From Citreicoccus inhibens (lineage in GTDB: Bacteria > Myxococcota > Myxococcia > Myxococcales > Myxococcaceae): a DNA stretch of 64,000 bases. The notes beneath the pieces were generated by a model, which worked only from the letters and a program-made list of their open reading frames with translations, ran no database searches and had not been told where the DNA came from. Below are positions 8,191 to 39,251 of this stretch, piece by piece (within the stretch, counting starts at the first letter, position 1; each line of letters starts with the position of its first letter). The stretch spans positions 1-64,000 of the forward strand of contig NZ_JAHNZT010000025.1 of assembly GCF_019039035.1 (NCBI RefSeq). The letters are read 5' to 3'. The position numbers were made by a program, and so were the translations under genes.

Positions 8191-10980
<2,790 letters not shown>

Positions 10981-33814: not shown

Positions 33815-34915
33815 ATGCCGACTCTCTTCGACCCCATCACCGTGGGCGACCTGCCGCTCGCCAACCGCGTCGTCATGGCGCCGCTGACGCGCAACCGCTC
33901 GCCCAACGCGATCCCCCCGGACATCGCCGCCACCTATTACGCGCAGCGGGCGACCGCGGGGCTGCTCATCAGCGAGGCCACCGCCATCTCCCATCAGGGG
34001 CAGGGCTACGCGGATGTGCCCGGCCTGTACCACCCCGATCAGCTCGTGGGTTGGCGACGGGTGACGGACGCGGTGCATGAGGCGAAGGGCCGCATCGTCG
34101 CGCAGCTCTGGCATGTGGGGCGCATTTCGCACCACGAGCTTCAGCCGAACCATGGGGCTCCGGTCGCGCCGTCCGCCGTCGTGGCGAACGCCAAGACCGT
34201 GCTGCTTCGGAATGGTGCCGCTGAGTTCGTGCCCACGGCCCTGCCTCGGGCGCTGGAGCTGGCGGAGCTGCCCGGCATCGTGCGGGACTACGCCACCGCC
34301 GCGCGCAACGCGGTGACGCTCGGCGGCTTCGACGGAGTCGAGGTCCACGGGGCCAACGGCTATCTCTTGGATCAATTCCTCAAGAGCGGCTCCAACCACC
34401 GGACGGATGCTTACGGTGGGAGCATCGAGAACCGCGCCCGCTTCATGTTGGAGGTGATGCGCGCGGTCGTGGATGGGATTGGCGCGAAGAAGACCGGCAT
34501 TCGCTTGTCCCCGGTCACGACGGCGAACGACGCGTTCGATTCCAACCCGCAGCCGCTGTTTGAGTACGTCGTGCGCGAGCTGGCGAAGTGGGATCTGTCG
34601 TATGTGCATGTCATCGAGGGCGCGACGGGCGGCCCGCGCGAGCTGCCCGACCGGCCATTTGACTATGCGGCGATGAAGCGGGCGTACCGCGAGGCCGGCG
34701 GCAAGGGCGCGTGGATGGTGAACAACGGCTACGACGGCGCGCTGGCGAAGAAGGCCATCGAGGATGGCGCGGACCTGGTGTCGTTCGGTCGTTCGTACAT
34801 CTCGAACCCAGACCTGGTGCGCCGCCTGCGCGAGGACGCGCCGCTGGCGAAGCTCGACAAGGCCACGCTCTACGGCGGCGGAGCGAAGGGCTACATCGAC
34901 TACCCCACGCTCTGA
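33815..34915 (+). CDS. Old yellow enzyme-family alkene reductase
   Basis: A 366-residue FMN-dependent (beta/alpha)8-barrel ene-reductase of the NemA/OYE type. It reduces activated C=C bonds of enones, maleimides or nitro compounds with NAD(P)H. The FMN-binding N-terminal strand is in LFDPITVGDLPLANRVVMAP. The family motif HGANGYLLDQFLKSGSN with YGGSIENRARF (about residues 180-215) is intact, and the C-terminal FGRSYISNPDLV binds the phosphate. The ATG at 33815 is the natural start; the upstream open frame is not protein-like. Monocistronic. Confidence 0.94.
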   Translation: MPTLFDPITVGDLPLANRVVMAPLTRNRSPNAIPPDIAATYYAQRATAGLLISEATAISHQGQGYADVPGLYHPDQLVGWRRVTDAVHEAKGRIVAQLWHVGRISHHELQPNHGAPVAPSAVVANAKTVLLRNGAAEFVPTALPRALELAELPGIVRDYATAARNAVTLGGFDGVEVHGANGYLLDQFLKSGSNHRTDAYGGSIENRARFMLEVMRAVVDGIGAKKTGIRLSPVTTANDAFDSNPQPLFEYVVRELAKWDLSYVHVIEGATGGPRELPDRPFDYAAMKRAYREAGGKGAWMVNNGYDGALAKKAIEDGADLVSFGRSYISNPDLVRRLREDAPLAKLDKATLYGGGAKGYIDYPTL

Positions 34916-34988
34916 GCACGGGCGCGGTGTCCCCCGAGGTGGTCGCGCCGGGGGGGCACCTGGGCTCGCGGGTGCGCTCCGGGCGTGA

Positions 34989-35610
34989 CTACTTGAGCGT
35001 GTAGCGGATGGTCCGGGTCGTGTTGTTCGTCAGCTTGCCCGCCTTGGACTCCAGGTCGATGCCCTCGCGGGGCGGCGGCAGCGACTGCGCGCTGTCCCCG
35101 ATGCGGACGCTGCACGAGCCCGTTCCGGGGTTGCGCGGATCCGCCCAGTCGAAGGACAGGCTCGTAGACGTGTTCTTCTCCCACGACGTGGAGGCATTGG
35201 CCGCGAGCGTGCCCGTCTTGTCGGCGGAGCCCAGCTCGCCGCTGTACGCGTAGCGTGCCTCCAGCGCCTCGAGGTGCTGGTTCACGCCCTGTCTGGTCGG
35301 GCCGCTCGGCGCTCCCGTCCTCCACCAACTGCTGGACGCTCTCGGAGTAGATGACCTTCCAGCGCTTGCCGAGCATGGTTCCCTTCTTCTGGCTGGCCTT
35401 GTAGACGCCGCGACCGCCGATCTGCTTGTAGTTGGCGAGCATGGCCTGGTAGTCGACGGTCCACTCGACGCCCGTTTCGCCGCCGTCCGCCGCGGTCGAC
35501 TGGAGCCACGAGACGCTCTCCAGGCCGGGCGAGTCCGGCAGCGTCTGATACAGACCCATGGTCCACGTACGACCGGTGTTGTTGATGAAGTCGACGTACA
35601 TCTTGCTCAT
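34989..35610 (-). pseudogene. Frameshifted hypothetical protein (RhiA-like N-terminal half)
   Basis: The start at 35610 opens a frame whose first 98 or so residues (MYVDFINNTGRTWTMGLYQ, later GVEWTVDYQAML) faintly resemble the RhiA family of rhizosphere/quorum-regulated proteins. The coherent protein then continues in another frame (NQHLEALEARYAYSGEL to the stop at 34989). Removing one C from the CCC run at 35314-35316 joins them into a single 206-residue reading frame. The second half contains Ser/Thr-rich strands of beta-sandwich character. Either the gene carries a real one-base insertion or this is a sequencing error. The RhiA link is tentative and rests only on remembered motif resemblance. 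Confidence 0.6.
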
Positions 35611-35728
35611 GGCGTGCTCCTTGTTCCGCGCGACGCGCGGCTCGTGATGGATGGGAATGAGCGCCGCGCCCTGCGTCGGGGCCGCGAGTGCGAAGGGGCC
35701 GCGCTCGAAAGGAAGACGGCCCGAGTCC

Positions 35729-36047
35729 TCACGCGGTTATTTCGTCCACCATTTCCTGCGCATCCGCGCCAAGTCCCGCCGCGAGGCTGCGATAGGCGAG
35801 CATCAAGCGACGGCGCACGTTGACGGGGGTAAGCCCCAACTCACGTGCGATGTCCGCGCTCCCCAGTCCCTGAATTCAGGTCATGCTGCCGCGCATCGAA
35901 GGCCTGGAGTGCTCGGAGCATCGCGATGCTCAGCGCGTCTTCGGCATCGGCCCAGTGTCCCCCCGTTCGCTGGAGACTCAGCTTCAGGAGTTGCGGGCGC
36001 AGCTCGTTCCAAACAGCCCAGAAGCGGTTCGTCGTCGCGTCGTCCAT
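35729..36047 (-). pseudogene. Degraded ECF-like sigma factor gene
   Basis: From the ATG at 36047 the frame encodes about 57 residues like sigma region 2 (FWAVWNELRPQLLKLSLQR, then DAEDALSIAMLRALQAF) and then stops. A different frame immediately beyond encodes a region 4.2 helix-turn-helix, DIARELGLTPVNVRRRLMLA, up to a stop at 35729. The roughly 80 residues expected between region 2 and region 4 are missing, and the two parts are out of frame. The join lies at a 12-bp palindrome CCTGAATTCAGG near 35870. This is a sigma gene broken by an internal deletion. Its parent is not the intact fusion gene at 36920, whose sigma sequence differs. Confidence 0.65.
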
Positions 36048-36919
36048 GGTCCCCCCGGAAGCAGGAAGCGGCGCGAGCCAGCAATGCGCGTGCCTCGGTT
36101 GGGGCGGCCATTCCTATTCATTGCCTGCCAACGTTGATGATGTGGTCGGGGTTGTTTGGGAGTGTGTGTCAACCTTTGACGCGGGTTCACGACTCGGCGG
36201 GTCCGTTTGGGATATGCCGAGTCCTCCAATGCGCCGGATGGGCGATGCGCCGGGTCGTCGGTGCGTGTGGGCTCGGGTCATCGGTCAAGATGGCCCCGCG
36301 TCGCTTGGGCCCTGCGACGTGTCGTCGCTGCGCGGCTCCGGGCGCGAGTCCGACGAGGTCACGGCATGACACATCGCACGCCATGCCATGGGATGCTTGG
36401 AATTTCGGATTGTGGTGGTGTGGCCGGAGGAGCGCAGGAACTCAGTGTATGAGTGCAGACTGGCCTTGCCAGCCAGGAGCGGAGCGCTTCAGCGCTTGCA
36501 GGGCAACGTCCCGGCGATGTTGCGGTGCGCTGGCTTCACGGTAGTCGTGGAGGGTGGCCGCGGCACGGAGATGGCCAAGCTCAGGGGCGATGCCGCTGCG
36601 CTATGACCTGAGTCGGTGCACGTGTATCGGTGATGCGGTGACGAGAGGGGCCCTGGTGGTTGGCTCGAGAGCGCTCGTTGTCCGGTCGTCCCGCCTTGCG
36701 TTCGGCGTCGCGCGTGGATTGAGCTTTGCCAGTTTGGCCTCTTCGAAGTGGCTGCTCTGGCGGGGCGCGGACTCGCCTCGTAGAGGGCGGCGAGTGGTCC
36801 ACTCCACGGGTCTGAAGCGCCCCATTGTGCGGAAGACACCAGGGGCTCACCAGGGCAGGTTCTCTGGGCTGCTCCGGGATGCTCTATGGTGAAGCGAATC
36901 TTGAGCGAAGGCGAGGGAT
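36048..36919. other. About 0.9 kb of lower-GC sequence without a convincing gene
   Basis: Short open frames exist on both strands here, but none has a ribosome-binding site, backbone-like codon use or a recognisable motif. The composition is lower in G/C than the flanks and resembles the following fusion gene. It probably holds the upstream control region of the sigma-fusion/viperin unit and decayed remains of transferred DNA. No terminal inverted repeats or transposase motif were seen. Confidence 0.5.
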
Positions 36920-38188
36920 ATGTCGGGAGCTGGCGAGGTTCGAGCACAGCCGTCTCGGATTCCTGTCTGGCGTTGGCTCATCGCCGCGACGGTGTTGGGG
37001 GTCTTCGTCATCCGCGTCTGTCTCCCCCTGACGGTATTGAGTATTGGGGTGGCGATAGGGTTGGGGGTTCTGGGCGTGGGGTATTCGCTCAATCCCATGG
37101 GAGTTCTCGCTGTCGGCACTTTCGCAGAGATGGCCCAGGTCTTCGCCATGCTTCTGGCATCTGTGCTAGCCATCTTCATTGTCGTCACCGCCAGGAATGT
37201 GGGTCGCGCGCTCCTAGGGAGGGGCACTCCCCCTTCACCTGTCACTCGGCGACCGTGGCTGATGCTGGGGGGCCTTCTCTGGATGGGGTGCTGGCTCAGC
37301 GTTTCCACTGGGGCGGGGCGAGTCATCTCGAACGTGTGGATTGGTGCGGTCGTCATGACCTTCGCGGCGTGGGCTGTCCTGACCGTTGGCGTGCTCCTGC
37401 TGCGCGCTGGTGTGAAAGTGTCTCAGTGGTCGTGGCGGCTTGCTCGCGCATCGCTCGGTGGAACTGGGTTGCTGCTCCTCCTGGCGTGCATCGCGCCAGA
37501 TAGCTGGCTCGAAGCGATGTTCCCTGCCGAGTCCCGGCGCTTCTGGTCCCAACCTGGTGTTTCGGCCCGACTGGCCGATGCCAATTCGTACTCCTGGGAG
37601 GCTGGGCGTGAGGCGCTGCTTGCCACGAGACGACAGGACTCCACACCCCAGGTCGTGGGAGTTGCTGACTTCAAGTCCGAGTCAAGCGCGCTTGGCTCAG
37701 ACGCCTCGGACTGTCTGGAGCAGCGCATCCAGCAAGCTGACTTGATGGAGAAGGCTCGCCGTGTCGCGAGCCGATTCGTGCAGAGCCATGATGTAGAGGA
37801 TGTCGTGCACACGACCCTCATCAGCACCTGCTTGAGAGTTCCTCCTCCTTGGGATTTCGAGCAGTACTTTCTGCGCTCGATCGAGTTCAGTGCCAGGGAT
37901 GAGTTCCGGCAGAGGAGTCGCGCCTGCTGTTTGGAGGAGCGGTCTGAGCCCGTCTGTCCTGTCCGGCAGGATGAGCAGCTCATCTCCGCGGAGGCGCTCT
38001 GTGCCCTCACTTGGGCAAGCTGCCAACTCCCCGTTAAAGAGTGGGAACTTCTGCGAATGCGGTACTACGAGGAGCGGACGGATGTGGAGATTGCGCGGCA
38101 GTTGCACATCACGCCTGTCGCCGTCCGAAAAAGACTCCAGCGCGCCCGGGCGAATTTACGGGCCAAATTTCCCGAGGAATGTCAGTAG
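36920..38188 (+). CDS. Polytopic membrane protein fused to an ECF-like sigma factor
   Basis: A 422-residue protein of unusual architecture. About six hydrophobic helices lie at roughly residues 16-38, 39-57, 69-90, 112-130, 138-162 and 179-193. A polar linker (about 195-265) leads to a sigma-70-like C-terminus. Region 2 covers about 267-335 (RVASRFVQSHDVEDVVHTTL, then FEQYFLRSIEFSARDEFRQR). Region 4 covers about 357-415 (LLRMRYYEERTDVEIARQLH and the recognition helix ITPVAVRKRLQRARANLR). The obvious inference is a membrane-tethered sigma factor, inactive until released by proteolysis or able to act at the membrane. It reads into the viperin gene 80 bp downstream. Base composition is lower in G/C than its neighbours, suggesting transfer. 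GAGGG precedes the ATG. The family was not recognised. Confidence 0.8.
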   Translation: MSGAGEVRAQPSRIPVWRWLIAATVLGVFVIRVCLPLTVLSIGVAIGLGVLGVGYSLNPMGVLAVGTFAEMAQVFAMLLASVLAIFIVVTARNVGRALLGRGTPPSPVTRRPWLMLGGLLWMGCWLSVSTGAGRVISNVWIGAVVMTFAAWAVLTVGVLLLRAGVKVSQWSWRLARASLGGTGLLLLLACIAPDSWLEAMFPAESRRFWSQPGVSARLADANSYSWEAGREALLATRRQDSTPQVVGVADFKSESSALGSDASDCLEQRIQQADLMEKARRVASRFVQSHDVEDVVHTTLISTCLRVPPPWDFEQYFLRSIEFSARDEFRQRSRACCLEERSEPVCPVRQDEQLISAEALCALTWASCQLPVKEWELLRMRYYEERTDVEIARQLHITPVAVRKRLQRARANLRAKFPEECQ

Positions 38189-38200
38189 GTTATGAAATTG

Positions 38201-38217
38201 GGTCACATTTTCTGACC
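38201..38217. promoter_or_regulatory. Small inverted repeat between the sigma fusion and viperin genes
   Basis: GGTCA (38201-38205) and TGACC (38213-38217) flank CATTTTC in the 80-bp gap. It could be an operator or a weak hairpin affecting readthrough into the viperin gene. No T-run follows. Confidence 0.3.
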
Positions 38218-38268
38218 TGGGGAGAGTGGAGCCTTTGAGCGCAGGTGAAGGCGCTCGCTGGAGGCTTC

Positions 38269-39189
38269 ATGAACTCGCTGTCGAGTCCCTCGCATTCAGA
38301 ATCTCCGTCCCTTGGCGCGAAGGTGCTGCCGGCCTCGGTCAACTTCCATCTGTGGGAGCCCTGCAACATGCGGTGCCGGTTCTGTTTCGCGACGTTCAAG
38401 GATGTCCGCGCAGACGTGCTACCCAAGGGCCACCTTCCCGAGCAAGAGGCGTTGCGCTTGGTGGATGTGCTGGCGCATCGCTTCAAGAAAATCACCTTCG
38501 CGGGAGGAGAGCCGTTGCTGTGTCCCTGGCTGCCGGACTTGGCGAAGGCTGCCAAGGCGCACGGCGCCATCACGATGCTTGTGACCAACGGTAGTCAACT
38601 CCGAGCCGACACTATCGCAAGACTGCGCGGTGTCATGGATTGGGTCACGCTGAGCATCGACAGCATCTCGCCCGAAACGCATGTCAAACTGGGGCGAGCA
38701 GTCCAAGGACGCGCACTGTCTCCAGCCGACTACGTCGCCATGGCCGAGGGGGTTCGCGCAGCCGGGATGCGCTTGAAGATCAATACTGTCGTTACCCAGT
38801 TGAACAAGGGAGAGGACCAGACGGAGCTCCTTCGCGCGCTGAGGCCAGAGCGGTGGAAGTTGCTGAATATTCTCCGCGTGGAGGGGCAGAACAGCGGGAA
38901 AGTCGATGGCCTGTGCTGTGACTCCCAGGAGTTCAATGCGTTCGTCGCCCGTCATCGCGCCTTGGAGGGTGATGGCATCGTGCTTGTTCCTGAGGACAAC
39001 GAGGACATGCTCGGCAGCTACGCGATGGTGGATCCAGCGGGGCGCTTTTTCGACAACGCCGAGGGAAAGCACCGCTACAGCGCGCCCATTCTTGCTCAGG
39101 GACTGGACTCAGCGTGGGCCCAGGTCGCCTTCTCCATGGAGCGCTTCGAGCGGCGCGGCGGTCTCTACGACTTCAATGGGAGGCCATGA
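38269..39189 (+). CDS. Prokaryotic viperin homologue (pVip), antiviral radical-SAM enzyme
   Basis: A 306-residue radical S-adenosylmethionine protein. The cluster-binding CX3CX2C is CNMRCRFC (Cys32, Cys36, Cys39) in the viperin-type context VNFHLWEPCNMRCRFCFATF. The SAM motif GGEP is at 79-82, and the viperin-specific C-terminal signature PEDNEDMLGSYAMVDPAGRF is at about 241-260, ending with RRGGLYDFN. Viperins convert CTP, UTP or GTP to 3'-deoxy-3',4'-didehydro nucleotides that terminate viral RNA synthesis; pVips protect bacteria from phage. The exact nucleotide made here is unknown, and no nucleotide kinase is adjacent. GGAGG at 38260-38264 fixes the ATG at 38269 over a GTG at 38245. It follows the membrane-sigma gene on the same strand. 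Confidence 0.93.
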   Translation: MNSLSSPSHSESPSLGAKVLPASVNFHLWEPCNMRCRFCFATFKDVRADVLPKGHLPEQEALRLVDVLAHRFKKITFAGGEPLLCPWLPDLAKAAKAHGAITMLVTNGSQLRADTIARLRGVMDWVTLSIDSISPETHVKLGRAVQGRALSPADYVAMAEGVRAAGMRLKINTVVTQLNKGEDQTELLRALRPERWKLLNILRVEGQNSGKVDGLCCDSQEFNAFVARHRALEGDGIVLVPEDNEDMLGSYAMVDPAGRFFDNAEGKHRYSAPILAQGLDSAWAQVAFSMERFERRGGLYDFNGRP

Positions 39190-39218
39190 TCCGGCCTGCC
39201 GTCCCATTGAAGTGGGCA

Positions 39219-39244
39219 GCCCGCGCGAAGTGAGCGGCGCGGGC
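39219..39244. terminator. GC-rich hairpin after the viperin gene
   Basis: GCCCGCGC (39219-39226) pairs perfectly with GCGCGGGC (39237-39244) around a 10-base loop. It is 30 bases past the viperin stop and just before the convergent thioesterase stop, so it may serve both. No T-run. Confidence 0.45.
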
Positions 39245-39251
39245 GTTGCTC

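What the first reader, a model, noticed from the sequence alone, without database searches (positions are those of the whole stretch)
36920..39189. Membrane-bound sigma factor paired with a prokaryotic viperin: a possible two-gene antiviral system
Seen: a six-helix membrane protein fused to sigma regions 2 and 4, then, 80 bp later on the same strand, an intact viperin homologue. Both sit in a lower-GC segment flanked by gene wreckage. Known: pVips make RNA chain terminators against phage, and ECF sigma factors can be held at the membrane until a signal releases them. Inference: phage or envelope stress may activate the sigma part, which then transcribes the viperin gene (and itself), or protects host transcription from the terminator nucleotide. 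I am not aware of a described sigma-membrane fusion serving a viperin gene.
Basis: partly seen in the sequence, partly recalled or inferred. Interest (0 to 1): 0.92.

Follow-up and report, generated by a model that had tools for sequence, protein, structure and literature searches.

The report
Membrane sigma factor controlling bacterial viperin
In one family of predatory soil bacteria, a gene for an antiviral viperin enzyme nearly always sits directly behind a gene for a membrane-anchored transcription factor, with a conserved promoter-like DNA element between them, which suggests a viperin defence that is switched on by a signal at the cell envelope.

Summary
The pair is real, and it recurs. 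Window 36920-38188 encodes a multi-helix membrane protein fused to an ECF-type sigma domain. Window 38269-39189 encodes an intact prokaryotic viperin (pVip). In 195 Myxococcota genomes, all 13 copies of the membrane-sigma gene lie directly upstream of a pVip on the same strand. They span four genera, with sigma identity to the window down to 31%, and 13 of the phylum's 15 pVips have it.

Two features were added here. First, the sigma-pVip gap holds a strongly conserved element, GGTCACA-N18-GTGGAGC, followed by a hairpin and the ribosome site. An exact match occurs once per genome, at this spot, in 12 of 13 genomes (about 140 Mb); the thirteenth has one mismatch. It is absent upstream of the sigma gene. 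Second, 11 of 13 loci carry a third, overlapping gene for a deoxynucleotide-monophosphate-type kinase, which the window has lost.

Best reading: a signal-gated sigma dedicated to one promoter, driving pVip plus kinase. A real puzzle remains. Charge distribution, strictly conserved even-numbered cysteines and a signal-peptide-bearing relative all suggest that the sigma domain may face the periplasm. Function is untested. This is a new variant built from known parts.

The parts
36920..38188 (+). Membrane-sigma fusion gene (422 aa)
   Evidence: ORF; sigma regions; all 12 full-length copies (this one included) plus one frameshifted copy lie upstream of pVip
36965..37519 (+). N-terminal membrane part (residues ~16-200, 5-6 hydrophobic helices); no Pfam match
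   Evidence: Hydropathy and loop charges; AlphaFold helices; Pfam
37691..37921 (+). Sigma region 2-like domain (residues ~258-334), with C265 and C304
37973..38185 (+). Sigma region 4 domain (residues ~352-422), with C368 and C421
   Evidence: Pfam 2.8e-9; Foldseek match to ECF sigma factors for the M. eversor homologue
38201..38232 (+). Conserved ECF-type promoter-like element GGTCACA-N18-GTGGAGC
   Evidence: Alignment of 13 loci; unique exact match per genome
38237..38256 (+). Hairpin before the ribosome site (GAGCGC-8-GCGCTC), with a different sequence but kept pairing in other genera
38260..38264 (+). Shine-Dalgarno GGAGG of pVip
   Evidence: Sequence, invariant in the alignment
38269..39189 (+). 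Prokaryotic viperin (pVip), 306 aa, CNMRCRFC radical-SAM motif
39186..39233 (+). Apparent scar of the lost kinase start: ATGA overlap kept, then a 15-codon reading frame. In 11 other loci the DNMK-type kinase starts here
   Evidence: Sequence; no kinase found in G000
34972..39250 (.). Segment absent from sister genome G073 (91 bp there)

Best explanation
A regulated antiviral operon: membrane-anchored ECF-type sigma factor -> dedicated promoter -> pVip -> (d)NMP kinase. The sigma gene is transcribed at a basal level from an ordinary promoter. Its product is held inactive through its N-terminal membrane part. A signal at the cytoplasmic membrane or periplasm (possibly redox, through the invariant cysteines, possibly produced by phage infection) activates or releases the sigma domain. 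That domain directs RNA polymerase to GGTCACA-N18-GTGGAGC, so that a short leader with a 5' hairpin, pVip and the kinase are made. pVip then makes a 3'-deoxy-3',4'-didehydro nucleotide that terminates phage RNA, and the kinase feeds nucleotide phosphorylation. Shown: gene order, its conservation, the unique conserved element, hairpin pairing, the kinase, intact pVip motifs. Inferred: that this sigma reads this promoter, that it is gated, the signal, and the antiviral action in these species. In the window strain the kinase is gone, so a host kinase would have to serve.
For: All 13 membrane-sigma genes in 195 genomes lie directly upstream of a pVip over its family cut-off, in 4 genera. The membrane part was not found elsewhere in the phylum: other listed profile matches begin at position 255 or later. 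The 0-mismatch motif GGTCACA-N18-GTGGAGC occurs once per genome, in the gap, in 12 of 13 genomes; the thirteenth has one mismatch there; all other hits have one mismatch and are overall no more common than the reversed control. The first half of the element is almost confined to this site. Spacer length 18 is fixed in all 13. Sigma and pVip distances correlate (r=0.88, Mantel p=2e-4). The third gene is DNMK-like (PF21448, 7e-16), its start overlapping the pVip stop; deoxynucleoside kinases also neighbour pVips on unrelated plasmids. The sigma domain matches ECF sigma factors by profile and fold.
Against: No expression, binding or phage data. Sigma region 2 is weak in the window copy. Predicted topology and cysteine pattern put the sigma domain on the periplasmic side, which conflicts with a simple tethered-sigma model. 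Shared ancestry can explain part of the distance correlation. The window copy has lost the kinase and one cysteine pair, and the G090 copy is frameshifted, so some copies may be decaying.
Confidence: 0.55

Rival explanations
1. The sigma-like domain is on the outer (periplasmic) face and disulphide-bonded. It would be a stored or sensor form that reaches the cytoplasm only after a membrane breach, cleavage or topology switch, or it no longer acts as a sigma factor.
For: Cytoplasmic-looking positive loops at 91-112 (+3 to +5, at most -1) and 163-181 (+2 to +3, 0) put the end of the last helix outside. AlphaFold shows five long helices, with N-terminal arginines before the first. All 12 proteins keep C265, C304, C336, C346, C368 and C421; seven have exactly nine cysteines, all at positions shared by the family. 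C221 and C228 are lost together in the window. Sigma domains here carry 3.6 Cys per 100 aa against 1.0 in 32 control ECF domains. The G068 relative carries a Sec-like N-terminus before the same six cysteines.
Against: HTH and region 2 residues typical of working sigma factors stay conserved, and a unique promoter-like element lies next door, which is pointless if the domain never meets DNA. Topology is from simple charge counts and low-confidence models. Cysteine-based metal sensing by cytoplasmic ECF factors is known in Myxococcus (CorE, PMC8999054).
Confidence: 0.25
2. The gap element is a cis-acting regulator (an operator read by another factor, or a leader hairpin acting on translation). 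The sigma protein serves another promoter, and the genes stay together only by shared descent.
For: The hairpin next to the Shine-Dalgarno is conserved by pairing. A 5-bp inverted repeat GTGAC/GTCAC is present in some loci.
Against: Fixed 18-bp spacing between two near-invariant blocks is ECF-promoter-like. The pair persists while most flanking genes change.
Confidence: 0.13
3. The sigma fusion protects host transcription from the chain terminator.
For: None found.
Against: A promoter-like element between the genes is not needed for this, and other pVips examined do without a sigma neighbour.
Confidence: 0.03

Closest known systems
Prokaryotic viperins (pVip; NF038283, PADLOC pVip and pVip-kinase models)
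   Same: Radical-SAM viperin with its motifs, and a linked nucleotide kinase gene in most loci
   Different: No sigma neighbour in five pVip loci on plasmids of other phyla nor in G165; here a dedicated membrane-sigma gene and a conserved promoter-like element
ECF36 and other ECF sigma factors fused to membrane or anti-sigma parts (ECF36 N-terminal TM + DUF2275; ECF48/52/53 and IutY C-terminal; review PMC8999054)
   Same: One polypeptide with membrane helices and an ECF domain; membrane part N-terminal as in ECF36
   Different: No DUF2275 or zinc-finger match, a different 5-6 helix membrane part, strictly conserved cysteines, a single apparent target promoter
CorE-type metal-sensing ECF factors of Myxococcus (PMC8999054)
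   Same: Cysteines between and within sigma domains of a myxobacterial ECF factor
   Different: No C-terminal cysteine-rich extension and no CXC linker motif; membrane-bound
CarQ-CarR and other ECF/membrane anti-sigma pairs of myxobacteria (own knowledge)
   Same: ECF activity controlled by a multi-helix membrane protein
   Different: Two separate proteins there, one fused protein here; homology not tested

Membership tests
Prokaryotic viperin (pVip) | Score over the NF038283 cut-off (180 bits) | tested here: met
   295.4 bits
Prokaryotic viperin (pVip) | CxxxCxxC radical-SAM motif and viperin C-terminal motifs | tested here: met
   CNMRCRFC, GGEP, NTVVTQLNKGED, PERWK present in the translation
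Prokaryotic viperin (pVip) | Makes ddh-nucleotides and blocks phage | not testable with these tools
   Needs biochemistry and phage assay
ECF (group 4) sigma factor | Sigma2 and sigma4 without sigma3 | tested here: met
   Region 4 over cut-off, TIGR02937 over cut-off, region 2 weak; profile matches SigE and SigW
ECF (group 4) sigma factor | Binds core RNA polymerase and directs transcription | not testable with these tools
   Needs in vitro transcription
ECF36-type TM-fused ECF | DUF2275 domain with 3-4 N-terminal TM helices (PMC8999054) | tested here: not met
   No DUF2275 match at E<=1 in any of nine members
CorE-like ECF | C-terminal cysteine-rich domain and CXC in the linker | tested here: not met
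   Protein ends with sigma region 4; the conserved linker cysteines are about 10 residues apart
DNMK kinase (third gene) | PF21448 over its cut-off | tested here: met
   58.9 and 57.1 bits against 27.1 in two homologous loci; the gene is absent from the window and not found in its genome

The most novel reading that the evidence does not exclude
A sigma-factor domain that is kept in the periplasm in a disulphide-bonded form and is admitted to, or released into, the cytoplasm only when a phage (or other insult) breaches the membrane, there to switch on one promoter: that of an antiviral viperin.
Probability: 0.12. Interest if true: 0.95.

Novelty: new variant of a known kind. Interest (0 to 1): 0.74.

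Why it matters
How bacterial viperins are switched on is, to my knowledge, not established, unlike interferon-driven viperin in animals. A one-sigma, one-promoter circuit wired to a membrane sensor would be a bacterial parallel: a signal-induced viperin-plus-nucleotide-kinase module. It also yields a testable sensor and a clean single-target sigma/promoter pair, and it raises a topology puzzle (cysteine-locked, possibly extracytoplasmic sigma domain) that, if solved, could reveal a new way of gating transcription.

Tried and rejected
Genome-contig scan with P0001 alone found nothing; the alignment query then found 8 named loci. Viral contigs: no close pVip relative. A profile search of the phylum for membrane-part relatives without pVip found only generic sigma domains and the G068 short relative. 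Autoregulation: the motif is not upstream of the sigma gene. Hairpin as an intrinsic terminator: no consistent T-run. Kinase elsewhere in the window's genome: not found, but that search had no positive control. Literature: the one paper holding both 'prokaryotic viperin' and 'sigma factor' is a general review on homeostasis, which was not read further; the original pVip paper is not held. AlphaFold of the full protein is low-confidence (pLDDT 55 and 61), so no contact or disulphide geometry was drawn from it. Origin of 34972-36919: no plasmid match.

Full report
What is there. The window holds two intact genes 80 bp apart on the + strand. The first (36920-38188) has about 185 residues of hydrophobic helices followed by sigma regions 2 and 4. 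The second (38269-39189) is a pVip well above its family cut-off. In sister genome G073 (flanks mostly 91-96% identical) the stretch 34972-39250 is missing, and only 91 bp separate the neighbouring genes. The unit is therefore either an acquisition here or a loss there.

Recurrence. I searched 195 Myxococcota genomes with the first protein and with the pVip family model, and again with a profile of 12 fusion proteins. Every fusion gene, 12 intact plus one frameshifted (G090), sits directly upstream of a pVip on the same strand. Thirteen of the 15 pVips over the cut-off have it. The exceptions are G165, from a distant family, and G068, whose pVip is the most divergent and whose contig ends 312 bp upstream. 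Named carriers are Corallococcus carmarthensis, C. interemptor, C. llansteffanensis, Corallococcus sp. AS-1-6, Myxococcus eversor, M. qinghaiensis, Pyxidicoccus caerfyrddinensis and a Myxococcaceae MAG. The fusion protein is only 31-39% identical between the window and the others, while pVip is 64-72% identical. The pairing has therefore survived long divergence of the sigma protein. Flanking genes differ between most loci, although a thioesterase gene is a shared neighbour in Corallococcus and the window. pVips examined on five plasmids of other phyla have no sigma neighbour, and two of them have a deoxynucleoside kinase. Within the phylum the fusion was found only in the window's own family.

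Third gene. In 11 of 13 loci a gene for a kinase of about 185 residues starts at the pVip stop codon (ATGA overlap in the loci examined). It belongs to Pfam DNMK. The window keeps the ATGA but reads into a stop after 15 codons, and no copy was found elsewhere in its genome (no positive control). G090 also lacks it.

The element between the genes. The gap is the most telling feature. Across four genera it reads TTAyG-N6-GGTCACA-N18-GTGGAGC, then a hairpin, then GGAGG and the ATG. GGTCACA is invariant, GTGGAGC has one substitution in 13 sequences, and the spacer is always 18. The hairpin stem in the window (GAGCGC/GCGCTC) differs in sequence from the usual CCGCC(C)/GGGCGG but still pairs: 84.6% of cells pair, against 28-46% when the partner is slid (the shuffle controls are modest, 19 to 39 of 500 for the covariation score and the cells changed on both sides). 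In the 13 carrier genomes (about 140 Mb) the exact box pair occurs only here. A pattern built on the first half of the element finds this site exactly in 10 of the 13 (a further one with one mismatch) and only one exact match elsewhere. The element is not seen upstream of the sigma gene, where ordinary -10-like sequences are seen instead. Two near-invariant boxes with fixed spacing fit the general ECF promoter plan (own knowledge; inference). If GTGGAGC is the -10 box, the transcript would start just before the hairpin.

Sigma domain and the topology puzzle. Sequence profile and fold comparison agree on an ECF sigma domain, and helix-turn-helix residues are invariant (RKR.QRAR). Yet the cysteines outside the membrane are conserved, in even number: 221/228, 265/304, 336/346, 368/421. 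Seven of the twelve proteins have no cysteine beyond these and C124. The window has lost 221 and 228 together and gained four others. Related ECF domains carry about a third of this cysteine density. Loops at 91-112 and 163-181 are strongly positive, so the last helix should end outside. AlphaFold gives five long helices with moderate to low confidence. A short relative in G068 has a signal-peptide-like N-terminus before a sigma domain with the same six cysteines. I regard this as a real conflict between apparent location and apparent function. It could mean redox or metal gating in the cytoplasm, an unusual topology, or an extracytoplasmic stored sigma domain.

Mechanism. The best-supported reading is a dedicated sigma/promoter pair driving pVip and kinase, gated at the membrane. 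The gene order, the conserved element and its uniqueness are shown. Sigma-promoter recognition, gating, trigger and antiviral effect are inferred.

Comparison. Fused membrane-ECF factors are known (ECF36, ECF48/52/53, IutY; PMC8999054), as are pVips and their kinases (PADLOC models). The review's description of ECF36 (DUF2275) was tested and not met. I found no report of a sigma factor tied to a viperin in the papers held. Hence: new variant of a known kind, with an unusual membrane-sigma protein at its centre.

Noticed in passing
L073 11268-11840 (-) (genome G068): Sigma-like protein with a Sec-signal-like N-terminus and the same six cysteines, followed by TGTCACGAAATTCGGTG (resembling the pVip element) and a small Gly/Ser/Pro-rich ORF of about 44 aa instead of pVip.
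   Followed up: partly
L074 5518-6384 (-) (genome G068): Divergent pVip (224 bits) overlapping a 435-aa gene with no Pfam match; upstream sequence ends after 312 bp.
   Followed up: partly
L075 10464-13258 (-) (genome G165): pVip of a distant Myxococcota family, preceded by a 578-aa protein with no Pfam match.
   Followed up: no
window 34900-35610 (-): An apparently frameshifted gene of no clear family at the edge of the segment absent from the sister genome.
   Followed up: partly
L072 (genome G090), about 9060-10240 (-): Membrane-sigma gene broken by a frameshift and kinase absent while pVip and the element remain: probably a decaying copy.
   Followed up: partly
window 36920-38188: The fusion protein evolves far faster than its pVip (31-39% against 64-72% identity), fastest in the membrane part and the linker after it.
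   Followed up: partly
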